Assembly: GCA_029855935.1 (NCBI GenBank)
Contig: JAGSHN010000011.1
Coordinates: forward strand, 1-54,201
Length of the DNA stretch: 54,201 bases
DNA from: Candidatus Thorarchaeota archaeon
Lineage (GTDB): Archaea > Asgardarchaeota > Thorarchaeia > Thorarchaeales > Thorarchaeaceae
Reading direction: 5' to 3'
Part shown: positions 34-31,489 of the stretch, piece after piece
Position numbering within the stretch: position 1 is the first letter of the stretch
Layout: each line of letters opens with the position of its first letter
The notes under the pieces: model-generated
Told to the model about the DNA's origin: nothing
Seen by the model: the letters and a program-made list of their open reading frames with translations, nothing else
The model's database searches: none
Program-made: the position numbers and the translations under genes

Positions 34-3000
34 CTTTCAATCCTCTTAGCTGAGGCTTTTGATCTTCAACCTGGAGAATGTGCAGTGCACGGCCACCGAG
101 AATCTCGTGACTTTCAATCCTCTTAGCTGAGGCTTTTGATCTTCAACTCGAACGGCGTGCTGAAGGTGCGCTTCAGCGTGAGTTACAACTTTCAATCCTC
201 TTAGCTGAGGCTTTTGATCTTCAACACCGGCGAGCGCCGTCAGCACCGTGTTGCGGATGTAACTCTTTCAATCCTCTTAGCTGAGGCTTTTGATCTTCAA
301 CTGGTCAAGGGAGTTTGTACTAAACGGGCTATGCCTCCTCTTTTAATCCTCTTAGCTGAGGCTTTTGATCTTCAACCGGGCTGCCTCAGGGTACTGCTCC
401 TGCTTCGCAGAAACTTTCAATCCTCTTAGCTGAGGCTTTTGATCTTCAACTGTACACGGACGCCTGACCGCGTACTGGACGACCAAGCTTTCAATCCTCT
501 TAGCTGAGGCTTTTGATCTTCAACCGAGAAGGTCCTCCGCGGCCGCTACGGGATGCGTGCACTTTCAATCCTCTTAGCTGAGGCTTTTGATCTTCAACCC
601 AGTGTCGGCACGGACAAGCTGCGCGTCAGTAACGCTTTCAATCCTCTTAGCTGAGGCTTTTGATCTTCAACAGCGGGTGAAGTAACGCGGGCTGAGCGTG
701 GGAAAGCGCCTTTCAATCCTCTTAGCTGAGGCTTTTGATCTTCAACCTGAGCTGCGGTTCCAGAATCGGCTCAAAGACCAGCCTTTCAATCCTCTTAGCT
801 GAGGCTTTTGATCTTCAACCGGGTTCGTGAAGCACAGCAGGCTCGCACGACCTACACTTTCAATCCTCTTAGCTGAGGCTTTTGATCTTCAACGCTCTGG
901 AGGCCACAGAGGCGGGCTGCGACCGCAGGGGGCTTTCAATCCTCTTAGCTGAGGCTTTTGATCTTCAACTCACTCTGTCAGAGGATAGGCCAACTCAGGA
1001 AGATGACTCTTTCAATCCTCTTAGCTGAGGCTTTTGATCTTCAACTATTCCCTGGAGTGCAGCAATTGCCGACGACACCAGCTTTCAATCCTCTTAGCTG
1101 AGGCTTTTGATCTTCAACTTGTGAGCATGGCCATGATTCCGGTATTTCCACAGTCCTTTCAATCCTCTTAGCTGAGGCTTTTGATCTTCAACATGCTCTG
1201 GCCCCCTCATGCATGAGGAGGATAACAGGCTTTCAATCCTCTTAGCTGAGGCTTTTGATCTTCAACGGTGAACGGCACTGCGCAGTGGAAACTGCTTCAG
1301 GCCCTTTCAATCCTCTTAGCTGAGGCTTTTGATCTTCAACAGGTCTCCGAGGCCGCGACGATGTTCAATGTCTTCGTGCTTTCAATCCTCTTAGCTGAGG
1401 CTTTTGATCTTCAACCGTGCGGTACGGCATAGTTGACTACAGCAAGACCCTCACTTTCAATCCTCTTAGCTGAGGCTTTTGATCTTCAACGGAGCAGCGT
1501 TCGAGGCGGATCTATCTGGTGCATCTTCCTTTCAATCCTCTTAGCTGAGGCTTTTGATCTTCAACCTTTGAGCGGCTGCTCCGGGCCATCGGTCACAAGA
1601 CCGCTTTCAATCCTCTTAGCTGAGGCTTTTGATCTTCAACCGCGATGCTCAAACAGCTCGTACAGGAGAAGAATAGTCTTTCAATCCTCTTAGCTGAGGC
1701 TTTTGATCTTCAACCCACTTCTCTATGGGTGGGTAGTAGTGTTCGCTCTACCTTTCAATCCTCTTAGCTGAGGCTTTTGATCTTCAACAACCACCCTCGT
1801 GACATCGGTTTCGTTCAGGAAGTCTCTTTCAATCCTCTTAGCTGAGGCTTTTGATCTTCAACCCCTGATTGAGCTAAGGCGTAGATACAACAATGATTAG
1901 TCTTTCAATCCTCTTAGCTGAGGCTTTTGATCTTCAACGTATTTCTCTTCAAGTCATCATCTCTCCTATTCAGACTCTTTCAATCCTCTTAGCTGAGGCT
2001 TTTGATCTTCAACCTCCATCGGTATCAAAGGACTTTGTGATTGTCTTTACTTTCAATCCTCTTAGCTGAGGCTTTTGATCTTCAACGGGGTTCGAGGAGG
2101 GATATAAGATGGACTACAGGGCCTTTCAATCCTCTTAGCTGAGGCTTTTGATCTTCAACTTGGTGATGACGGGAGGGAAGAGTGATAGTAGACTGCTTTC
2201 AATCCTCTTAGCTGAGGCTTTTGATCTTCAACAATTGTGGTGAATGGTGGGTCAACAACGAAGACTCTCACTTTCAATCCTCTTAGCTGAGGCTTTTGAT
2301 CTTCAACATAGCCGCAGATGAGAAGTGGAAGGCACGCATGCGTGCTTTCAATCCTCTTAGCTGAGGCTTTTGATCTTCAACGGAGGAATGAGATAGTGGC
2401 AGAAGGTACTATGGCAGACTACACTTTCACTCCTCTTAGCTGAGGCTTTTGATCTTCAACGTTCGTCAGCACGTTCGGCGGCTATGCGCATCAGGACGCT
2501 TTCAATCCTCTTAGCTGAGGCTTTTGATCTTCAACTGTGCATGAAATTGGTCATTGGTTGGTGCTTAAATATTACTTTCAATCCTCTTAGCTGAGGCTTT
2601 TGATCTTCAACGAATTCGGACTTCAGCATAGGAGCCGGCAGGGGCCGACTTTCAATCCTCTTAGCTGAGGCTTTTGATCTTCAACCTTGAATTCGATAAT
2701 TCGCATCCTGCGATGGAACGCGTCTTTCAATCCTCTTAGCTGAGGCTTTTGATCTTCAACGTTCGGAGGATGAGTCAGAGTGGAGTGGGGAATTGTTCCT
2801 TTCAATCCTCTTAGCTGAGGCTTTTGATCTTCAACGTTCGTGTCTGGTATGAGAGCGCAGCATTCGACTCTCTCTTTCAATCCTCTTAGCTGAGGCTTTT
2901 GATCTTCAACCTGGACTTCTTGATTAAGAACAAGGCTGAGTCCGCTGCTTTCAATCCTCTTAGCTGAGGCTTTTGATCTTCAACGAAGATAGTGAATGAG

Positions 3001-5977
3001 GAGCCCGTGCCGATCTCCGCCTTTCAATCCTCTTAGCTGAGGCTTTTGATCTTCAACCGTTACGATGCCCTCCTGCACCAGCAGCTCGTAGCCGTCCTTT
3101 CAATCCTCTTAGCTGAGGCTTTTGATCTTCAACACACAGTCTACTCCTCGACCTCCACAACGAACAGTCTCTCCTTTCAATCCTCTTAGCTGAGGCTTTT
3201 GATCTTCAACACGCGGTTCGGCCCGCAGTCCGTGCTGGGCTACTTCTTCCTTTCAATCCTCTTAGCTGAGGCTTTTGATCTTCAACCTCGGGGGCGGGCT
3301 TCAGCACCTTCTCAGGCTCATCCTTTCAATCCTCTTAGCTGAGGCTTTTGATCTTCAACGTCGGTACGGACTTCACACTCTCGGGGCGTGGGTGTTGGAC
3401 TTTCAATCCTCTTAGCTGAGGCTTTTGATCTTCAACCCTCGAAGACGTGGTGCGACAACTCGGAAAGGTCTTCCTTTCAATCCTCTTAGCTGAGGCTTTT
3501 GATCTTCAACGTTGTGAAGCTGCAGATTCTGGATGAGGGACTTACTCACTTTCAATCCTCTTAGCTGAGGCTTTTGATCTTCAACCTTCATTGCCCTCAG
3601 CGTCATACCAGGACAGGATCATACTTTCAATCCTCTTAGCTGAGGCTTTTGATCTTCAACGTAGGCGAGTACGAGGTCCCCGCGGGCGAGGCGTGGACTT
3701 TCAATCCTCTTAGCTGAGGCTTTTGATCTTCAACCAATAGCCAACTCTCGCCGAATATCCGCTCGCCAATCACTTTCAATCCTCTTAGCTGAGGCTTTTG
3801 ATCTTCAACCCGTGAGCGCATTCACACTCAGGCCGCCGAAACTCGCCTTTCAATCCTCTTAGCTGAGGCTTTTGATCTTCAACGAGGAAGTGACGAAGAC
3901 GATAGAGGAACTCGAACGCGCTTTCAATCCTTTTAGCTGAGGCTTTTGATCTTCAACCAAGTTGGAGCAGCATAGCATACAGGGCGGGCTACTTGTCTTT
4001 CAATCCTCTTAGCTGAGGCTTTTGATCTTCAACTATTGTGTAATCACAGATACAATGGGGGCCTATACTGTCACTTTCAATCCTCTTAGCTGAGGCTTTT
4101 GATCTTCAACATTCAAGACTGACTATCCATCGGGTTCCTTTCACGTGACTTTCAATCCTCTTAGCTGAGGCTTTTGATCTTCAACGCTGTCCGAGTCGGA
4201 CACTGTCGAGGCCACATATCAGCTTTCAATCCTCTTAGCTGAGGCTTTTGATCTTCAACGGCGTCATGCAGCGCGGTGCATTTCAGGGAATCAATAACTT
4301 TCAATCCTCTTAGCTGAGGCTTTTGATCTTCAACTGCCAACCTTAACCCCGGTCACTACATTGGCGTATTCGCTTTCAATCCTCTTAGCTGAGGCTTTTG
4401 ATCTTCAACGGCCTGTATCTTTGCCAGTCTCGCCGTCGTCTTCCTCGCTTTCAATCCTCTTAGCTGAGGCTTTTGATCTTCAACAGCATAAGACAGTTGG
4501 CCCTGCGTTTCGAGGGGCATGCTTTCAATCCTCTTAGCTGAGGCTTTTGATCTTCAACTGACATTTTTTGGTTCACCTCGACCCACCCATAGAGCACTTT
4601 CAATCCTCTTAGCTGAGGCTTTTGATCTTCAACACGCGGTTCGGCCCGCAGTCCGTGCTAGGCTACTTCTTCCTTTCAATCCTCTTAGCTGAGGCTTTTG
4701 ATCTTCAACGATCTGCGCAGGCTGCGGTCTTGTCCTCCTCAAGATTACTTTCAATCCTCTTAGCTGAGGCTTTTGATCTTCAACAATCAACATGTATCTC
4801 GCCTCCAAGAGGCGGAGAGACACTTTCAATCCTCTTAGCTGAGGCTTTTGATCTTCAACCGAACTCACTCGCCATCAGCAGCGATCTGACGCTCTCCTTT
4901 CAATCCTCTTAGCTGAGGCTTTTGATCTTCAACACATCAAGAACTACAATGCCGTGCGGTACGGGATCGCTTTCAATCCTCTTAGCTGAGGCTTTTGATC
5001 TTCAACGCCTGCACAATTCTCTCTCTGTGCTAGTGGGACTTGTCGTGACTTTCAATCCTCTTAGCTGAGGCTTTTGATCTTCAACTCACTGAGGGAAAGT
5101 GGGTAATCACCTTTCGCTCAGACTTTCAATCCTCTTAGCTGAGGCTTTTGATCTTCAACGGGGGTAACAACGGGGACAGCCGACCTTCTGACCAATCTTT
5201 CAATCCTCTTAGCTGAGGCTTTTGATCTTCAACAGAGAATGAGGCTATACCGCGAGGAGGCGAGCGTGTACTTTCAATCCTCTTAGCTGAGGCTTTTGAT
5301 CTTCAACTCTGCGTGCGCAAGTCCAACCGCACGAACCACCGCACACTTTCAATCCTCTTAGCTGAGGCTTTTGATCTTCAACCTCTCCGCTCCCCCCGCT
5401 TGTGCTTTCGCGGAACGGAACTTTCAATCCTCTTAGCTGAGGCTTTTGATCTTCAACCTAGTCCCGTTTGACGACATCTTTCTCACTGTTGTACTTTCAA
5501 TCCTCTTAGCTGAGGCTTTTGATCTTCAACTGCGAATGGCAATGCTGTTCGCGTGACCGGCCCAGTCTTTCAATCCTCTTAGCTGAGGCTTTTGATCTTC
5601 AACCTCGTCAGAGTATCCCAAGAACATGTCCGAATACTGGCTTTCAATCCTCTTAGCTGAGGCTTTTGATCTTCAACCTGTTCGTATCGCATGATGATTT
5701 CCTCCGCTTCTGCGCTTTCAATCCTCTTAGCTGAGGCTTTTGATCTTCAACAGTCGTGTTGGCGAGTGGGAGCCAGAAGCATGCCTTGTCTTTCAATCCT
5801 CTTAGCTGAGGCTTTTGATCTTCAACATGAGCGACGAAGGAGTGCTAGAAAGTCTAGTCCGCCAACCTTTCAATCCTCTTAGCTGAGGCTTTTGATCTTC
5901 AACAAGAGATTCGACATCATCGTGATGGACGACATTCTGACTTTCAATCCTCTTAGCTGAGGCTTTTGATCTTCAAC
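34..5977 (-). CRISPR. CRISPR array, 80 repeats, open at the left edge
   Basis: Eighty copies of a 37-nt repeat, starting CTTTCAATCC and ending GATCTTCAAC on the + strand, alternate with 79 complete spacers of 36-42 nt; bases 1-33 are part of another spacer, so the array continues leftward. Only three repeats differ, each by one base: at 340 (C5T), 2424 (A7C) and 3921 (C12T). The reverse complement ends in ATTGAAAG, the usual 8-nt crRNA 5' handle of many type I and III systems. Transcription is therefore inferred to run right to left, with the leader at the right end. No degenerate terminal repeats are seen on the left, so the old end is not in the window. No cas gene lies in the window, so the type cannot be assigned. 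Confidence 0.98.
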
Positions 5978-7712: not shown

Positions 7713-8816
7713 TCATGCGCTCTGCGGAGCATCGGTATTCTCTGTCTGAGCGGGGGGCTGCTGACCGGTCGGGCCATTGACGGGGCCCCCGCTTATCACC
7801 GAGTGGACTCCTCTGATCAGGGTCGCCAGCCAGAGTCCGAGCAGGAGCCAGTAGAGTGCGAATCCAATCCAGTCCACGAGTGTGAGGCCGAGGACGTGAG
7901 CGACGATGTGGCTCCCGGCGACGTAGGCACCGAGCGGGAAGATAAATGCCCACCAGCCCATCGAGTAAGGCAGCCGGAGTCGACGGATGTAGTGAGCGGT
8001 GAGTCCCAGCGCGAGGAGGAGCCACCAGATGCCGAAGCCCCACAAGAGGAACGCGAGTACGAAGAACGGCTCCTTTAGCGAGACGAATGCTGAGCCGCTG
8101 ATCAGGTTCACGAGAGCCACCGCGCCTGCCCCGATGGGACCAAGGCCTATCCAGATGGTCGGTGCGAGAACGTTTGGCATGGGCCGGTGCAGGATGAACC
8201 TGTACATGCATATTGCTAGGAGGGCCACGTACAGCAGGAAGCCAGCACCGAAGCCGAAGTAGTTCAGCAGAATGACCAGTTCCTGCTCGACTCCCGTCCT
8301 ACCCTCGATGAAGGGGCCACCAAGCGGGATGACGATGAGCGCCACTGGCGGGATGAACCAGGCGGGCGTGATGTGGTCGAGATGAATGTCCTCACTCTTG
8401 AACATCTCATAGGGAATCACGATACTGAACAGCACGGTCCCCAACGAGCCGGCGAGCCAGAAGTAGTAGGCCAGATCGAGCAGGGCCATCTGCTTGAAGT
8501 GGATCCCGAGCACGACGAGAGCAATCGTCATCGTTGGATAGAAGTTGGACCGCATCGGGTGCCGGAGGTCCTGCACGGCACTGGCCCGACACGTCAGCCA
8601 TCGTAGTGTCCACGGAACAAGCAGGACAAAGAAGATGATGATGTTCGCGTACATCAGTAGCTGTGAGAACGCTGCGAGGAGGGGCAGCCCGGTAGAGTAC
8701 TGCGAGCCCGTCATTGCAAGGACGCCAGTTCCCATCACCACAGCGAACCACGAGGGATTGAAGTTGCATATGGTTTCTGAACGCAATGTCTTCGCCTCTC
8801 TGACATATTGAGTCAC
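7713..8816 (-). CDS. TDT/SLAC1-family membrane transporter
   Basis: A protein of about 367 residues with roughly ten hydrophobic helices, starting with the family-like FNPSWFAVVMGTGVLA segment of the tellurite-resistance/C4-dicarboxylate (TDT, SLAC1-like) family. Members export anions such as sulfite or carry dicarboxylates; the substrate here is unknown. The frame is open up to 8960, but that part overlaps the end of the preceding permease gene and reads as Arg/Ser-rich non-protein. Start candidates after the upstream stop are GTG at 8816 (used here) and TTG at 8786; neither has a clear ribosome binding site. The tail after the last helix is polar and Pro/Gln-rich. It is probably cotranscribed with the Acr3-like gene just upstream. 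Confidence 0.85.
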   Translation of the reverse strand: MTQYVREAKTLRSETICNFNPSWFAVVMGTGVLAMTGSQYSTGLPLLAAFSQLLMYANIIIFFVLLVPWTLRWLTCRASAVQDLRHPMRSNFYPTMTIALVVLGIHFKQMALLDLAYYFWLAGSLGTVLFSIVIPYEMFKSEDIHLDHITPAWFIPPVALIVIPLGGPFIEGRTGVEQELVILLNYFGFGAGFLLYVALLAICMYRFILHRPMPNVLAPTIWIGLGPIGAGAVALVNLISGSAFVSLKEPFFVLAFLLWGFGIWWLLLALGLTAHYIRRLRLPYSMGWWAFIFPLGAYVAGSHIVAHVLGLTLVDWIGFALYWLLLGLWLATLIRGVHSVISGGPVNGPTGQQPPAQTENTDAPQSA

Positions 8817-8853
8817 GGATTGACTGGCGGACGGATTGACAGATTGCGATTTT

Positions 8854-9939
8854 TCAATGTTCCTGTATGGTCGGGCTGTCGGACTCCACTTCCTGATTCC
8901 CTGGCTGGTCTGCGGCGGCTGCCTCGCCGCTCTCAATCCACGAGCGGATCCGCGGCGCATACCTGAGTATGACCAGCATCAGTGGTATCTGGATCATCGG
9001 CGCGAATGCAGCGGGCAGTGCAGCGAGCTCGCCAAAGGTCGTCAGTGCAAGTGCGATGGTGATGGAGTGGTTCTTGGCCGTCACACCGTAGCCCTGCGCG
9101 ATAGTGTCCCCGAAGTCAAGACCGACCAGGCGGGAATACACCAGCGAGAGGATGAACAGCAACGGATAGGCAAACAGAATGCCCAGCCCTATCATCGCCA
9201 CGTATTCGAGGTGGGCAATGATCGTCTGCGCCTCCACTGCCATCATTATGAAGACGATGGCGAACATTCCAAGGCTGGACACCGCCGGGAAGGCTGGCTT
9301 GATTGCCTTGAACTTGGGCATCCCGTATCTTCTGATGATGCCCTGTCTGGTCACCAGTCCTGCGAGGAGAGGGAGCACGATGATGATGAGGATCTTCTGC
9401 GCCATCAGCCAGATGTCGATCGTGACGTAGACGCGCACAAGGACGTACATCCACACGGGGATGAGCACTATGCCCAGCAGAAAGCTGAGTGTGACGATGA
9501 CCAGTGCGGTCTCTGTTCTGCCCCGGGCGAAGCCCGTCCACGCCACCACCATTCCGCTGCACGGAACCGTCAGCTTCAGGATGAAGCCCACCGTGAGCAG
9601 GGGATCAAGGCCGGAGAGCAGCACTCCCGCCACGGCGGCTGCGAGTAGCGGCGAGAGAACAAAGTTGAGCGCAAGGACGCCGACGATCACCCTGGCACTG
9701 AGCGCCTCTCGTTCCACCATCTCAAGATGAATGCCAACCATCATCGGGTATAGCATGAAGAACAGGGGAATAGGAACGAACGGTTTGAGGAGCCTGGCGC
9801 TGTCCGGTGCGTACGTACCGTAGAGTAGGCCCAGCACTATCATCACACCAACGATTGGCGCGAGGTGGCGACGGATCAACGAAGAGTATCGCTGTAGTCT
9901 GTCTGGCAATTCTAATACCTCGTGGTTGTTGGAATGCAT
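8854..9939 (-). CDS. Acr3/BASS-superfamily efflux permease, possibly arsenite
   Basis: A 361-residue integral membrane protein with about ten helices. VPCSGMVVAWTGFARG (after residue 120) matches the Acr3 helix-4 signature PCT-MV-W in position and pattern, and GVTAKNHSITIALA matches the second discontinuous helix of the bile-acid:sodium symporter superfamily. Acr3 proteins expel arsenite through the membrane; here the Cys of the PC motif is kept. Arsenite as substrate is inferred, and other BASS cargo is possible. It heads a leftward transcript with the TDT-like gene, under a promoter with a spaced inverted repeat that is shared with the nearby thioredoxin-like gene. Confidence 0.8.
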   Translation of the reverse strand: MHSNNHEVLELPDRLQRYSSLIRRHLAPIVGVMIVLGLLYGTYAPDSARLLKPFVPIPLFFMLYPMMVGIHLEMVEREALSARVIVGVLALNFVLSPLLAAAVAGVLLSGLDPLLTVGFILKLTVPCSGMVVAWTGFARGRTETALVIVTLSFLLGIVLIPVWMYVLVRVYVTIDIWLMAQKILIIIVLPLLAGLVTRQGIIRRYGMPKFKAIKPAFPAVSSLGMFAIVFIMMAVEAQTIIAHLEYVAMIGLGILFAYPLLFILSLVYSRLVGLDFGDTIAQGYGVTAKNHSITIALALTTFGELAALPAAFAPMIQIPLMLVILRYAPRIRSWIESGEAAAADQPGNQEVESDSPTIQEH

Positions 9940-26339: not shown

Positions 26340-27374
26340 CTATATCTTCCAATACCATATATCGTCTACTCCACTCAATATCTTACTCGCGTCAAATTCG
26401 GGGTGGTCTAGCACATGTTCTACCTCTTTGACTAGTTCTTTCACGCTATCCCTTTGTATTATGTGCTCCCTAAGACAGTTTGTATATGCACCCCTCACGA
26501 CCTTATCTAGGACTATCCTGAATGATGGGGGTGGTAGTGCGCCATATACCTGAGTAGAGAGACTGCCCAACAGCACCCCTGTGAGAAGGCCTTCTTCAAT
26601 ATTCCCCTCTATGAACTGGGGCAAGAAACCCGCCACAAAAGCGTCACCGCATCCTAGGGAATCTCTTACGGTTCTGCAACTAATAGCAGGCACATAATAC
26701 CATTCTCCATCAGAACGTACGTGGCATAGGACTCCCTTTGAACCTAGCGTCACAACGAAGTCTTTCTGTAGACGCTCCACTCTCTCCAAGCTCTCAATGA
26801 AACTCCTCTTGGTTGCATTGATCAGCTCTTGTTTGTTGAGAAACACGACGTTTGCAGGACTATGTTCTATGGACGCTATACTATACTTGGCAGTAGGATT
26901 CATAGCCATGATAGCTGCACCTTTGTCAGTATCTCCACGAAAAATAGAGTTGATAATGTCCATAGGCAGCTTGACATAGAGCGTTGTATTTTTGTCGTTG
27001 GTAACGATAGTTTCTATGTACGAGCTATAGTCTGAGTGTTGCCAACTTCCAATATCTCTTAGCACCCATATAGGTTCCCCACAGGTTTGATAGATATCCA
27101 CTGTGGTTGTTCTCCTGCCTTCTAGGTCCCTATCCATACATTCAACGAGCAAGTTGTCTTGAAAAGGCTCTAGTCTACTGTGCGTAACACGCGGAGACAA
27201 CCTACCACAGCATGTGTAAAACGATACTAAGTGATTGGCAATTGCCAACCAAAGGGATGTAGATAGTCCCCCGCCACCCAAGAAAGAAGGGCATTGGGGG
27301 AGATAGTGCAAAATGTCTAACTCAAGAAAACCAAGTATCGCTAGATTGTGACCTCTACCATGGACCATACTCAT
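26340..27374 (-). CDS. PfkB/ribokinase-family kinase
   Basis: A 344-residue protein of the ribokinase fold. GGGGLSTSLWLAIA (near residue 33) fits the substrate-binding GG motif; DSLGCGDAFVAGFL near residue 245 is the ATP/anion-hole signature (usually GAGD, here GCGD, with the catalytic Asp kept). LNKQELINATK corresponds to the N-x-x-E-motif helix. The family phosphorylates sugars and nucleosides. In this operon a nucleoside or deoxynucleoside kinase is the best guess, by context only. It starts 2 nt after the stop of the preceding kinase gene, so it is translationally linked, and it is the last gene of the AT-rich five-gene operon. Confidence 0.8.
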   Translation of the reverse strand: MSMVHGRGHNLAILGFLELDILHYLPQCPSFLGGGGLSTSLWLAIANHLVSFYTCCGRLSPRVTHSRLEPFQDNLLVECMDRDLEGRRTTTVDIYQTCGEPIWVLRDIGSWQHSDYSSYIETIVTNDKNTTLYVKLPMDIINSIFRGDTDKGAAIMAMNPTAKYSIASIEHSPANVVFLNKQELINATKRSFIESLERVERLQKDFVVTLGSKGVLCHVRSDGEWYYVPAISCRTVRDSLGCGDAFVAGFLPQFIEGNIEEGLLTGVLLGSLSTQVYGALPPPSFRIVLDKVVRGAYTNCLREHIIQRDSVKELVKEVEHVLDHPEFDASKILSGVDDIWYWKI

Positions 27375-27376
27375 AC

Positions 27377-27964
27377 CTACATCCTTGTAATCAGAGCCAC
27401 AATACTCTTCGTTACAGCCTCTATACTCTGGCTCCCATCTACTTGCCTCATCAACCCTTTATCTACCATGTCCTTGTAGACTCTCCTAACATTCTCTAGA
27501 AAGCCGTTCTCGGCTACAGCTACTCTTTCGTCTGCGCTCTTTCTTGTCAAGGCTAGTGAAACTGGCACATCAATAAGGATGGTTACATCTGGACATAGAG
27601 AGTATCTGTAGATAGTTTCTATCCACTGAAGAGAGATGCCTTGTGGCACCAAGTAGGCAAAGGCGCAGTAGGGAGATCGGTCGGTAATAATGAAATCATA
27701 CTCTTCTAGTTCCGGCTCGATGATGGACATCATGTAGTAGTTGAGTGCACCAAATACAAGCGCTCTTATGCGGGCCTTGTATTTGTGACTCAGCCCAAGT
27801 GTGAGAATCTTGTCAACGTATTTCCCCATAGGAGTATCAAGCTGGACTATAGACCTCACCCTATAGTCTCTCTCTGACAGAATAGTTTCCAAGCAACGTA
27901 CCTGAGTGGTCTTTCCAGCCCCATCTATCCCTGCTAGAGCTACCCACCTACCTTTGTCTGTCAT
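27377..27964 (-). CDS. Thymidylate-kinase-like nucleotide kinase
   Basis: A 195-residue P-loop kinase. ALAGIDGAGKTTQ is the Walker A loop, and FIITDRSPYCAFAYL matches the DR-[SYH] motif that positions the nucleotide base in thymidylate and deoxynucleoside monophosphate kinases. DVTILIDVPVSLALTRKSAD gives the LID region with Arg. Usual dTMP kinases are 195-215 residues, so length agrees. The substrate may be dTMP or an altered dNMP. It overlaps the preceding deoxyribosyltransferase gene by 17 nt. Codon use is AT-rich like its island neighbours. Confidence 0.8.
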   Translation of the reverse strand: MTDKGRWVALAGIDGAGKTTQVRCLETILSERDYRVRSIVQLDTPMGKYVDKILTLGLSHKYKARIRALVFGALNYYMMSIIEPELEEYDFIITDRSPYCAFAYLVPQGISLQWIETIYRYSLCPDVTILIDVPVSLALTRKSADERVAVAENGFLENVRRVYKDMVDKGLMRQVDGSQSIEAVTKSIVALITRM

Positions 27965-28415
27965 TTTCGGTCACCTTCGTCTTTACTATCTCATCTAGAT
28001 AGTTGGAGAGCTCGTCTAGATTCTCTGCCACCCTAAACTTCAGACATCCAAGAATCATAGGGTTCATTTGTCCCTCTATTAGAGACCTCGGATCGGTTCT
28101 TAGACCAACGCACTCTTTGCCATAAGCATAGGCAGCGCCAAGTTCTACACATCCTCCTTCATCGGGTACGCGCCCGTCTAGAATGAAAACTAATATGTCA
28201 CATTCTTTTACCTCTCTCCAGTCCTTTTGGAAAATCAGTTCATGTGCATCTATGGCGCTGGTGTCTTTTACCAATTCTGCCAATTTGTACCCACTCTCTT
28301 GTGGCAAGAAAACATCAAAGCCTTGCATACGAAGGTACTCGGCTACTTCCTTATTGAACGAGAGTTCCGCCTCACTAAACATCGGAGCGGCTAAGTAGAT
28401 CCTAGTCCGCTTCAT
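27948..28415 (-). CDS. Nucleoside 2-deoxyribosyltransferase family protein
   Basis: A 155-residue protein from ATG 28415. The frame is open up to 28628, but that stretch overlaps the HhH gene; ATG 28424 is an alternative. RIYLAAPMFSEAELSFN is the family N-terminus; the middle DWREVKECDILVFILDGRVP and DEGGCVELGAAYAYGK carry the expected Asp and the catalytic Glu. Members exchange the base on a 2-deoxynucleoside or hydrolyse (deoxy)nucleotide glycosidic bonds. Base specificity cannot be read from the sequence. Overlap with both neighbours shows tight coupling in the operon. Confidence 0.82.
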   Translation of the reverse strand: MKRTRIYLAAPMFSEAELSFNKEVAEYLRMQGFDVFLPQESGYKLAELVKDTSAIDAHELIFQKDWREVKECDILVFILDGRVPDEGGCVELGAAYAYGKECVGLRTDPRSLIEGQMNPMILGCLKFRVAENLDELSNYLDEIVKTKVTENDRQR

Positions 28416-29253
28416 TGGTGTCATCTCTACTGGAGTTCTGGCTACATAGACCTTTGACCGGGCATAGGTAGCACTTATTACTTGCGCACAGTCCGCTTCC
28501 CAACAGCCATAGGTTTCTATCTGTTTCTGCTGGGTCGATGCTTTCCAATACGGAGGCTTCCACCCATATCTTTGAAAGCTCAGCTGGTAGCCTATTACTA
28601 ACCCGGTCCGAGGAAGAGTCTTCCTCAAGCCCCCTAATAATGCCTAACCTCATACTTACTTTTACATCGTGCCTGTCGATAGGAATGAACGGCATACAGT
28701 CATTATTCATATTGCCCAATAGGCCATTTTCATAGAGTATTCTTATCAATAAACCTCCTGTTTTTTGTCCAAACCCCCTAATCTCTGTAACAAGGTTGCG
28801 CAGCTCGTATAGAGTCGTCGCTTCCTTGATAAGATTTCTCGGATCACAGTCGTATTTTCGACATAGAACCTCAGACAAAGAAAACCAGCGTTTTGCCGCC
28901 TCCGTTGGAAAACGAACTCTCAGATAGCGAGATAGTATTCTAGACAGCCCTTCTATGTCGTTCTCGAAGTTTTCCAGAATATAGTCCGGATTGAACAACT
29001 CACGGAATTCAGAATAGGCGAGTCTTAGCCTCTGATGATAATGGTATGACCTTACGCCGTAATCTAACAGACATCCATAAAAGACATACAGATAGTGATC
29101 CCTAGACTCGTACTCAATATCTTCAGGCAGTTCAATAGTCGCCTTCCTAACTGTTTGAGCATCCCTGAAATAACTATGTAGGGCTCTAGCCGTTTCTCTC
29201 GCCCTATCTATATCGTATTCATAGAATAGGTTCACCATAGGCCACCTCTCCAT
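28402..29253 (-). CDS. HhH DNA-glycosylase-like protein with Fe-S motif
   Basis: A 283-residue protein. EIRGFGQKTGGLLIRIL near residue 160 resembles the helix-hairpin-helix of the EndoIII/HhH-GPD superfamily, followed by PIDRHDVKVSMRLGII, which supplies the place of the conserved Asp. The C-terminus carries CASNKCYLCPVKGLC (C-x4-C-x2-C-x5-C), close to the EndoIII 4Fe-4S loop. Residues 1-140 are helical and not typical of EndoIII (RDHYLYVFYGCLLDYGVRSY). It may excise or read a base in DNA, or act on a nucleotide as relatives such as Qng1-type nucleosidases with this fold do. Its start lies 35 nt inside the preceding amidohydrolase gene. Confidence 0.65.
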   Translation of the reverse strand: MERWPMVNLFYEYDIDRARETARALHSYFRDAQTVRKATIELPEDIEYESRDHYLYVFYGCLLDYGVRSYHYHQRLRLAYSEFRELFNPDYILENFENDIEGLSRILSRYLRVRFPTEAAKRWFSLSEVLCRKYDCDPRNLIKEATTLYELRNLVTEIRGFGQKTGGLLIRILYENGLLGNMNNDCMPFIPIDRHDVKVSMRLGIIRGLEEDSSSDRVSNRLPAELSKIWVEASVLESIDPAETDRNLWLLGSGLCASNKCYLCPVKGLCSQNSSRDDTNEAD

Positions 29254-30448
29254 TCAGCACTAGCGAGAATACGTCTCTCTCATTCAGCTTTTGGGACAAG
29301 TACTCCCAAGGGCTTTCCGTAGCTACATCAAGAACCAATATGTCGGCATATGCACCAGTAGTTAGTTGACCGCCTCCAAATAGTCTCATAGCAACTGTTG
29401 CTGATGACAATAGAACTCTAGGAATTATGACTTGTTGTGGAATGTCTGTGAAGTGGGAAAGCGTATGCAGTTCTTCTATGTATGTTTTGCTTCTAGTAAC
29501 AGCAAAACCGTCCAGGCCAACCGTCACGAGAAGGCCGTTCTTAAGATACTCACTAATTGGTGCCAAGTCACCAGCCAGCTGCATATTCGCTGTAGGAGAT
29601 ATTGTGATAACCGGCTTCCGTTCATAGAGTGTTTCTTTTTCACTAGGTGTGGCGTAAATGACATGTGACAAAATAGTGTGGCTATGTAAGAGACCAACTC
29701 TGTCAAGAAGGTTGATCGGAGTCAAGCCGTGAATTTCTTTGTTCAACTCCAATTCGCCAAGGCTTTCGTTCACATGAAATTGAGTGATAATGTCATCATC
29801 CAGCATGTCTTTTAGAGTTGCTAGCGCTTTGGGGGTCAGTGCAGGCAAGAACCTAGGAGCTATAGAAAACTTTAGCCTAGACCCCTTCCCGTACACTTGT
29901 CTATATTTGTTGATGATGGTCATTGCTTTTGCCGGATGTTCTATGATACAGCTAGGCAAAACTCTATTGTTATCCCCACAATAGCGTCCTATGGCTGCTT
30001 TCATTCCAGAGGAACAACAAGCCCTGACAACCTCATCATATACAAGGTTGGACTCCTGTAGGATTAGGTAGCCAACACCCGAACGGAGAAACTCGTTACA
30101 TTCTCTAGTAGCGTTCTGATACACGTCTTGCTTTGAGAGGGCACACTCTTCTCTAAATAATACATCGCTTAGCCATGCTAGAAGCCTCATACTAGGCTTT
30201 GGTGAGCTCACTAGTCTTTGATATGTGTGATGATGAGCATTTAGAAAAGGAGGTGTGACAAGTTTCCCCTCGATGCCAATTGTTCTGTCGCAGATGCGTT
30301 CTATCTCTCTAGAACGGCCGACTCGGACAATCTTGCCATCATAGATGGCGACCCCTCCGTCTTTGATTACGTGCGGCCCTTGATCCATCGGTACTATAGT
30401 GGCATTAGTTATGCCCACACTCCCTCTTTTCCTCATCTTTCCCGTCAT
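29219..30448 (-). CDS. TRZ/ATZ amidohydrolase, guanine-deaminase-like
   Basis: A protein of about 409 residues from ATG 30448 (ATG 30436 also possible; the frame extends to 30508 over the end of the methyltransferase remnant). Metal-binding motifs: NAHHHTYQ (HxH), QFHVNESLGELEL (His, Glu), LSHVIYAT (His) and VTVGLDGFAV (Asp). It is a distant relative of the gene at 17572-19002, but with different codon use. Members deaminate or dechlorinate heterocycles such as guanine and cytosine. First gene of the island operon. A base-modifying role is inferred. Confidence 0.8.
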   Translation of the reverse strand: MTGKMRKRGSVGITNATIVPMDQGPHVIKDGGVAIYDGKIVRVGRSREIERICDRTIGIEGKLVTPPFLNAHHHTYQRLVSSPKPSMRLLAWLSDVLFREECALSKQDVYQNATRECNEFLRSGVGYLILQESNLVYDEVVRACCSSGMKAAIGRYCGDNNRVLPSCIIEHPAKAMTIINKYRQVYGKGSRLKFSIAPRFLPALTPKALATLKDMLDDDIITQFHVNESLGELELNKEIHGLTPINLLDRVGLLHSHTILSHVIYATPSEKETLYERKPVITISPTANMQLAGDLAPISEYLKNGLLVTVGLDGFAVTRSKTYIEELHTLSHFTDIPQQVIIPRVLLSSATVAMRLFGGGQLTTGAYADILVLDVATESPWEYLSQKLNERDVFSLVLNGEVAYGEPIL

Positions 30449-30474: not shown

Positions 30475-31034
30475 CGTTCCGGACATATGTGAAGTTTGCC
30501 GTAAGCAAATCTGGGCGTAGTCATTGCGAGTCTGCCGCCAGTCTTCAAGAATGTGGTTGCATAGACGACAAATGGCGCCCACGAGGAGCTGAGACCGTTG
30601 AGCGTCACGGCGCACTCTCGTACCCCTTGAGAGCTCTCTCTCGATTCTCGCCCTTGAATCGGTGATACTTGACAAAAGGAGGATTCCCTACGACGGCATC
30701 AACTAATGGGATATCAGGTTCCGCAAGAGAGGCCGTGTTGCCCTCTCCAGTAGTCTCGAAGAAATCGGCATTCAGCAGGTTTGACAGTGGAATGCTAGTC
30801 CTCTCAACGACCATCTCGTAGACTGTGCTGTCTATTTCGATCCCATAGATCTATTTCGGACCTCCCAAGTTCGCGTAGCCGGTCCAGAGCAGCATCGAGA
30901 AAGACTCCGTCGCCAAACGCCGGGTCGAGAACTGTGTCCGACTCTCTTCGAATCGCCCATCGGACAAGAAACCTCGCCACGGAGCGGTCAGTGTAGAGTG
31001 CACCCAGTTTCTTCCTATACTCTATGATGGTCAT
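30475..31034 (-). pseudogene. Decayed N6-adenine DNA methyltransferase
   Basis: Remnant in three frames. The first part has MTIIEYRKKLGALYT and LDPAFGDGVFLDAALDRL (motif I, like DPACGSGxFL). After an indel near 30850 another frame gives IYGIEIDSTVYEMVV (motif II) and DAVVGNPPFVKYHRF (NPPF catalytic motif). A second shift near 30600 leads to SSSWAPFVVYATTFLKTGG and RLAMTTP, the segment after NPPF. The sequence then stops at 30475, well short of the C-terminal target-recognition region. So there are at least two frameshifts plus a truncation, at the edge of the AT-rich island. It resembles type IIG or PglX-like methylases. Confidence 0.75.
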
Positions 31035-31489
31035 GCAGCTTTTCACGCCACCGGCAGTTGCGGATTGGGGGCAACCGAACCGGGACACAGTACATTGTTG
31101 CGGCCAGTGGAACCGAAGCCACCCATCCTAGGGGTGTGGACCCGATGCCCATTCTCCCGGAGGGCATATATGCGGCTCACGGTTTGTTTCTTGTTTCCAT
31201 ACATATGAACCCACCAACGGGCCCTAGGGCAACCAGTCTGAGCACTGCTCCTCTCGATGTTCTCTCAAGGTCTATTGACCAGTCCTCTCCTTGGCCGTTG
31301 TCGGGCCGTAATTCGCTCAGTCGCTCTCTTCAGGCCAGTCTCGGTCGTATGGTGTTTCCAACAGTGTCTGGGGGTTCTTGGTGCCACCCGACCCTCTGAC
31401 CGGAGAGGAGAGGGGTTGCAGTCTGGAATCGAACAGTTAATAATACTCGCTGGCCAAAGCGGCGGCATTCACTGCGGGAGCTGTGTCAT
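31035..31489 (+). promoter_or_regulatory. Intergenic region with promoter of the mutase gene
   Basis: No gene is recognised in this stretch. GTTAATAATAC at 31436-31446 is a TATA-like box about 50 nt before the ATG at 31490. GCATATATGC at 31165-31174 is a perfect palindrome of unknown meaning. Confidence 0.4.

What the first reader, a model, noticed from the sequence alone, without database searches (positions are those of the whole stretch)
26340..30448. Five-gene operon linking base, deoxynucleoside, nucleotide and DNA chemistry
Amidohydrolase, HhH glycosylase-like Fe-S protein, nucleoside 2-deoxyribosyltransferase, thymidylate-kinase-like protein and PfkB kinase are encoded end to end, with overlaps of 13-35 nt or a gap of 2 nt (seen). 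Family knowledge: the first can deaminate a free base, the third can put a base on deoxyribose, and PfkB and TMPK types phosphorylate nucleosides and dNMPs. Together that is a possible route from a free base to a dNDP, plus an enzyme that may recognise a base in DNA. Inference: synthesis and control of an unusual DNA base, or a nucleotide-based defence. I know of no described system with this exact set.
Basis: partly seen in the sequence, partly recalled or inferred. Interest (0 to 1): 0.85.

Follow-up and report, generated by a model that had tools for sequence, protein, structure and literature searches.

The report
Mobile archaeal base-exchange nucleotide operon
An archaeal genome carries a foreign block of five overlapping genes whose enzymes can cut a base off a nucleotide, move it to another sugar and re-phosphorylate it; three of the five recur together inside an anti-virus gene island of another archaeon, which hints at an undescribed nucleotide-based role in fights with viruses.

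Summary
The five overlapping genes are real, and the family calls hold: amidohydrolase, HhH glycosylase-fold, nucleoside 2-deoxyribosyltransferase (NDT), TMPK-like kinase, PfkB. They form a 4.1-kb foreign block (GC 0.45, GC3 0.43-0.50; flanking genes about 0.57 and 0.66-0.75) beside a broken N6-adenine DNA methylase.

The exact five-gene set was found nowhere else. An overlapping NDT-HhH-TMPK trio recurs in another genome of the phylum (G140), between a defence-type reverse transcriptase (RT-UG13) and a defence-candidate protease. The HhH protein is the key: by profile it is related to archaeal AGOG (8-oxoguanine glycosylase); by predicted fold its top 11 PDB matches are all Qng1, which releases a 7-deazaguanine base from a nucleotide, though E-values are weak. 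Catalytic Lys and Asp and the AGOG purine-pocket Asp/Trp are invariant. Relatives sit beside DUF6884 (DpdC-like) or on haloarchaeal plasmids and a virus. The TMPK-like kinase has lost two TMPK-conserved residues near the thymine, and the genome has another TMPK.

Best reading: a mobile operon handling a guanine-like base, probably in virus-host conflict. The chemistry is fairly supported; the role is inference. It is a new combination of known enzyme kinds, not a proven new system.

The parts
29219..30448 (-). P0001, TRZ/ATZ/guanine-deaminase-class amidohydrolase (metal-ligand motifs NAHHH, FHVNES, SHTILSHV, GLDGF)
   Evidence: Pfam Amidohydro_1 2.5e-23. NCBIfam best: 5'-deoxyadenosine deaminase 1.4e-46, guanine deaminase 2.5e-30, 8-oxoguanine deaminase 9.5e-29, all far below their cut-offs. 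PDB best: atrazine chlorohydrolase 8.2e-26, MTA/SAH deaminase 7.5e-21.
28402..29253 (-). P0002, HhH glycosylase-fold protein of an AGOG/Qng1-like family; catalytic Lys164 and Asp193, pocket Asp245/Trp249, Fe-S-type cysteines C-x4-C-x2-C-x5-C
   Evidence: Family profile hits AGOG 1xqo at 1.7e-8. Fold search: top 11 PDB matches are DUF2419/Qng1, probability 0.99-1.00 but E 0.03-0.14. Profile-profile with an archaeal Q_salvage/AGOG-type family 99.6%, 3.6e-24. 57% identical homologue in a Micrarchaeota MAG.
27948..28424 (-). P0003, nucleoside 2-deoxyribosyltransferase (start 28424 or 28415)
   Evidence: Pfam PF05014 3.2e-21; NDT structures 7o62 7e-21 and 7m5h 2e-14, with the catalytic Glu region conserved.
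27377..27964 (-). P0004, thymidylate-kinase-like P-loop kinase with changed base-side residues
   Evidence: Pfam 6.2e-24 and TIGR00041 88.9 bits against a cut-off of 83.25. Arg of FxxxR and Gln of AYQ, kept in the genome's other TMPK, are changed. Weak hit to defence candidate PDC-M51B 1.2e-6.
26340..27374 (-). P0005, divergent PfkB/ribokinase-fold kinase (catalytic motif DSLGCGD)
   Evidence: Pfam PfkB 4.6e-13 over residues 174-280; nearest NCBIfam nucleoside kinase 2.3e-8; PDB 4e3a 4.4e-8, 2c49 2.6e-7.
30510..31089 (-). frame-broken N6-adenine DNA methylase remnant directly upstream (boundary of the foreign block)
   Evidence: DPAFGDGVFL, VVGNPPFVKYHRFKGENRE and LKTGGRLAMTTP in different frames, GC 0.54.

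Best explanation
The five genes are a laterally acquired, co-translated nucleotide-processing operon acting on a guanine-like (modified or damaged purine) base. Proposed working: the HhH enzyme breaks the N-glycosidic bond of a nucleotide carrying that base, as a free (d)NMP like Qng1 or in DNA like AGOG. The amidohydrolase changes the freed base or its nucleoside by hydrolytic deamination. The NDT moves a base on or off 2-deoxyribose. The PfkB enzyme phosphorylates the nucleoside (or sugar), and the TMPK-like kinase, no longer tuned to thymine, phosphorylates the monophosphate. The role I think most likely is in virus-host conflict: destroying or recycling modified purine nucleotides, or altering the nucleotide pool so that viral DNA synthesis suffers. 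Shown: gene layout, family membership, foreign composition, conserved catalytic residues, recurrence of the trio, and mobile or defence contexts. Inferred: the substrate base, the order of reactions, and the role.
For: Overlapping genes of foreign composition. An independent overlapping NDT-HhH-TMPK trio in G140 (17- and 14-nt overlaps) between an RT-UG13 defence reverse transcriptase (3.6e-72) and PDC-S45 protease (3.5e-25). In a small tree the two NDTs fall in different clades, so the same three families may have been assembled twice (long branches). HhH relatives: overlapping DUF6884 beside NERD/PglW-like and integrase genes in G003; next to DUF6884 on a Halomicrobium plasmid; next to DUF429 and DUF3883 on a Halalkalicoccus plasmid; in halovirus HGTV-1. 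DUF6884 is listed as DpdC, of the 7-deazaguanine DNA system (PMC11888242). Guanine-like base: AGOG pocket Asp218/Trp222 aligned with invariant Asp/Trp; Qng1 fold matches; 8 of 10 members of a sister family hit Pfam Q_salvage; purine-deaminase-class amidohydrolase. The kinase lost TMPK residues while a housekeeping TMPK exists at C21:234617.
Against: The five-gene set is unique so far and the trio was seen in one other genome only. The 57% identical HhH homologue (L017, Micrarchaeota) stands next to AMP phosphorylase and RuBisCO genes (identified by me from the sequence, not by a profile search), which points to nucleotide catabolism. The window operon itself lies among ordinary metabolic genes. 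P0002 misses the curated cut-off of AGOG and gives no Q_salvage hit; its model is confident only over about residues 41-187, and the fold hits have E-values of 0.03 or worse. P0004 passes the NCBI dTMP-kinase cut-off. No substrate is shown for any protein.
Confidence: 0.42

Rival explanations
1. A purine salvage or house-cleaning cassette with no role in conflict: the HhH enzyme releases a damaged or modified purine (8-oxoguanine, a queuine-like 7-deazaguanine) from nucleotides, the amidohydrolase deaminates it, and NDT and kinases rebuild a usable deoxynucleotide.
For: Qng1 is a salvage enzyme and is the best fold match. The Micrarchaeota homologue lies beside genes of the archaeal nucleotide-degradation route. 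The amidohydrolase scores include guanine and 8-oxoguanine deaminases. Window neighbours are metabolic genes.
Against: Patchy, foreign and absent from the three same-genus genomes. Most other contexts are defence islands, plasmids or a virus.
Confidence: 0.3
2. A pathway that makes an unusual DNA base: base to deoxynucleoside (NDT), to dNMP (PfkB), to dNDP (TMPK-like), with the HhH protein removing or editing it in DNA; possibly once a viral cassette.
For: All step types are encoded in one operon. Relatives occur in a halovirus and next to DUF6884, a DpdC-type family. Haloarchaeal virus HVTV-1 carries dPreQ1 at about 30% of G (PMC6884629).
Against: No base-synthesis or DNA base-inserting enzyme is in the operon. 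DUF6884 was not found in the window's genome. No viral contig or phage with the operon was found.
Confidence: 0.15
3. A chance or decaying gene cluster: co-transferred nucleotide genes with no joint function.
For: The exact set is unique; the upstream methylase is broken; the Micrarchaeota homologue has a stop at an Fe-S cysteine.
Against: All five frames are intact, overlap tightly and share one composition; an overlapping trio of the same families recurs; catalytic residues are kept.
Confidence: 0.13

Closest known systems
Qng1 / DUF2419 queuosine-5'-monophosphate N-glycosylase (Pfam Q_salvage)
   Same: Best fold matches; HhH fold with catalytic Lys and Asp; a sister archaeal family hits Q_salvage.
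   Different: P0002 itself has no Q_salvage hit, carries Fe-S-type cysteines, and sits in a deoxynucleotide operon.
AGOG, archaeal 8-oxoguanine DNA glycosylase
   Same: Best PDB hit of the family profile; catalytic Asp and pocket Asp218/Trp222 aligned.
   Different: P0002 scores 12.4 against a cut-off of 26.1; only the C-terminal third aligns; operon and mobile context.
Nucleoside 2-deoxyribosyltransferase (PF05014); relative DNPH1
   Same: Clear membership and catalytic motifs.
   Different: Part of an operon with a glycosylase-fold protein and kinases; whether it transfers or hydrolyses is untested.
Thymidylate kinase
   Same: P-loop and family scores.
   Different: FxxxR Arg and AYQ Gln replaced; the genome has another TMPK.
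Brig1-type antiviral DNA glycosylase defence
   Same: A glycosylase in defence contexts acting, by hypothesis, on modified nucleobases.
Dpd 7-deazaguanine DNA modification/restriction system
   Same: DUF6884 (DpdC type) adjoins two HhH relatives.
   Different: No Dpd gene in the operon; DUF6884 not found in this genome.

Membership tests
AGOG | Pfam PF09171 score at or above the curated cut-off | tested here: not met
   P0002 12.4 bits against 26.1; relatives P0007 28.8 and L012 31.6 do pass.
AGOG | catalytic Lys/Asp and base-pocket Asp218/Trp222 | tested here: met
   K164, D193, D245 and W249 of P0002 lie in the invariant columns of A2; the alignment to 1xqo covers the Asp and the Asp/Trp pair (residue roles from PMC3397491).
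AGOG | Gln31/Trp69 8-oxo recognition residues | not tested
   The N-terminal half does not align with AGOG by sequence.
Qng1 / Q_salvage | Pfam PF10343 match | tested here: not met
   No hit for P0002 at E<=1; 8 of 10 members of the sister family hit.
Qng1 / Q_salvage | Qng1 fold | tested here: inconclusive
   Top 11 PDB matches, probability 0.99-1.00, but E 0.03-0.14 and a partly low-confidence model.
Qng1 / Q_salvage | hydrolysis of a nucleoside 5'-monophosphate | not testable with these tools
   Needs enzyme assay.
HhH Fe-S glycosylases (Nth/MutY) | four-cysteine Fe-S loop | tested here: met
   C-x4-C-x2-C-x5-C in P0002; absent in the HGTV-1 and Halomicrobium relatives.
Nucleoside 2-deoxyribosyltransferase | PF05014 above cut-off, catalytic Glu motif | tested here: met
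   76.1 against 28.8 bits; GGCVELG motif aligned to solved NDTs.
dTMP kinase | TIGR00041 equivalog cut-off | tested here: met
   88.9 against 83.25 bits.
dTMP kinase | conserved Arg (FxxxR) and AYQ Gln near the base | tested here: not met
   Arg to Asn (2pbr alignment) or Leu/Asn, Gln to Leu; both kept in the genome's other TMPK.
PfkB / ribokinase-like | PF00294 above cut-off, G[AC]GD catalytic motif | tested here: met
   49.6 against 25.8 bits; DSLGCGDAF in P0005.
Guanine, 8-oxoguanine or 5'-deoxyadenosine deaminase | NCBIfam equivalog cut-off | tested here: not met
   All scores far below their cut-offs.
Phage thymidine hypermodification (HhH aGPT-PPlase type) | Pfam match of the HhH protein | tested here: not met
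   The only Pfam hit at E<=1 is AGOG.
Known defence system | PADLOC match of the system's proteins | tested here: not met
   Only weak kinase hits (PDC-M51B 1.2e-6).

The most novel reading that the evidence does not exclude
A new kind of mobile antiviral (or anti-defence) system in which a Qng1/AGOG-like HhH glycosylase, a deoxyribosyltransferase and a retuned TMPK-like kinase exchange or destroy a guanine-like base at the nucleotide level, for example clearing 7-deazaguanine or other modified-G nucleotides of viruses, or making a harmful deoxynucleotide in infected archaea.
Probability: 0.2. Interest if true: 0.85.

Novelty: new variant of a known kind. Interest (0 to 1): 0.55.

Why it matters
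If the reading holds, archaea use a glycosylase-fold enzyme not (only) for DNA repair but inside a mobile base-exchange pathway. This would link queuine-type salvage, 8-oxoguanine repair and antiviral nucleotide chemistry, and provide enzymes for making modified deoxynucleotides. At the least it defines an unannotated HhH family spread over archaea of several phyla, haloarchaeal plasmids and a virus, with clear biochemical predictions.

Tried and rejected
Thymidine-hypermodification (aGPT-PPlase) reading of the HhH-kinase pair: no Pfam support. Recurrent HhH-DUF6884 pairing across the phylum: only G003 among the 20 DUF6884 loci read. Empty-site comparison with same-genus genomes: synteny upstream of the mutase is not kept, so no clean site. 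Flanking repeats or a tRNA: none convincing. Structure of P0005 from a single sequence: useless (pLDDT 36.8). BFVD fold search: nothing. Legionella and Pseudomonas phage Y2 hits look like ordinary endonuclease III. The TMPK alignment used a wrong ORF for the genome's own TMPK and a reference partly typed by hand; it is replaced.
Full report
Observation. The five minus-strand genes at 26340-30448 are as described: overlaps of 35, 23 or 14 (by NDT start), and 17 nt, then a 2-nt gap. Pfam confirms four families above their cut-offs. The block has GC 0.444-0.459 and GC3 0.43-0.50, against 0.57-0.61 and 0.66-0.75 in sampled window genes. Upstream lies a frame-broken N6-adenine DNA methylase that ends where the block begins. 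The window is one whole contig of a 2.97-Mb archaeal assembly. An Arf-like gene in the window and small-GTPase-like genes in relatives suggest an Asgard archaeon; this was not verified.

The HhH protein. Alone it gives only a sub-threshold AGOG hit. Relatives were found in the same phylum, in a Micrarchaeota MAG at 57% identity, on two haloarchaeal plasmids and in halovirus HGTV-1. A profile of nine of them hits AGOG (1xqo) at 1.7e-8, aligning the catalytic Asp region and the Asp218/Trp222 purine pocket (roles in PMC3397491). K165, P191, D193, W230, D245 and W249 (P0007 numbering) are invariant. A two-sequence AlphaFold model is confident over about residues 41-187. Its top 11 PDB matches are all DUF2419/Qng1, ahead of every other HhH glycosylase, although with E-values of 0.03 to 0.14. 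The family aligns over its whole length (99.6%, 3.6e-24) with an archaeal sister family, most members of which hit Pfam Q_salvage and many AGOG. I therefore place P0002 between AGOG and Qng1 but file it as a member of neither: it misses both curated models.

The other enzymes. The amidohydrolase belongs to the purine/triazine deaminase class, with no equivalog assignment. The NDT is a clear PF05014 member. The TMPK-like kinase passes TIGR00041, but an Arg and a Gln conserved in TMPKs, which by my own knowledge of TMPK structures contact or flank the thymine, are replaced. They are kept in the genome's second TMPK at C21:234617. The PfkB protein is very divergent, with a recognisable catalytic half.

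Recurrence. None of the three same-genus genomes holds matches to the HhH, NDT, amidohydrolase or PfkB proteins at the thresholds used. In G140 an NDT-HhH-TMPK trio overlaps in the same compact way, between an RT-UG13 defence reverse transcriptase (3.6e-72) and a PDC-S45 protease (3.5e-25). In a small tree the two NDTs fall in different clades, so the trio may have been assembled twice; branches are long and this is not proof. In G003 an HhH relative overlaps DUF6884, near NERD/PglW-like and integrase-like genes. On a Halomicrobium plasmid DUF6884 is the neighbouring gene. DUF6884 is listed for DpdC of the 7-deazaguanine DNA system, and Pfam authors propose a DNA-lesion role for it. Haloviruses can carry 7-deazaguanine in DNA. 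Against this, the Micrarchaeota copy lies beside AMP phosphorylase and RuBisCO genes, an ordinary nucleotide-degradation setting.

Interpretation. The consistent theme is a guanine-like base: AGOG pocket, Qng1 fold, purine-deaminase-class hydrolase, and a kinase no longer tuned to thymine. Together the enzymes can cut, exchange and re-phosphorylate it. Of seven contexts seen for this HhH family, five are mobile or defence-type (G140 defence island, G003 with integrase and NERD genes, two haloarchaeal plasmids, halovirus HGTV-1) and two are not (the window, among metabolic genes, and the Micrarchaeota locus). I favour a role in virus-host conflict at about 0.4, with salvage at 0.3 and base synthesis at 0.15. 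The substrate, reaction order and role are inference; only sequence, layout and homology are shown.

Novelty. I know of no described system with this set, and a literature search for the combined terms returned nothing (held open-access papers only). Each enzyme belongs to, or borders on, a known superfamily; the combination and the HhH family look undescribed.

Noticed in passing
window 34-5977: CRISPR array of 80 repeats (37 nt, CTTTCAATCCTCTTAGCTGAGGCTTTTGATCTTCAAC; spacers 36-42 nt); no ORF of 150 aa or more before 6511 and the first gene checked (7713-8960) is a SLAC1 channel, so no cas gene was seen adjacent; no convincing spacer match to the fetched loci.
   Followed up: partly
window 30510-31089 (-): Frame-broken N6-adenine DNA methylase remnant ending at the operon boundary.
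   Followed up: partly
L017 8769-8771: The Micrarchaeota HhH homologue has an in-frame TGA exactly at the second Fe-S cysteine (pseudogene, sequencing error or recoding) and lies 55 nt from a divergent RuBisCO gene.
   Followed up: partly
L012, L013, L023-L037: Widespread archaeal family of about 315-390 aa with Q_salvage and AGOG similarity and a conserved C-terminal TWYY-like end; possibly uncharacterised Qng1-like enzymes.
   Followed up: partly
L039 7986-8708 (HGTV-1 gene 212) and L040 7776-8618: The HGTV-1 gene is annotated 'endonuclease III' but belongs to this HhH family; both proteins lack the Fe-S cysteines.
   Followed up: no
L010 1295-8616 (G140): Defence island with an RT-UG13 reverse transcriptase and a PDC-S45 protease around the NDT-HhH-TMPK trio.
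   Followed up: partly
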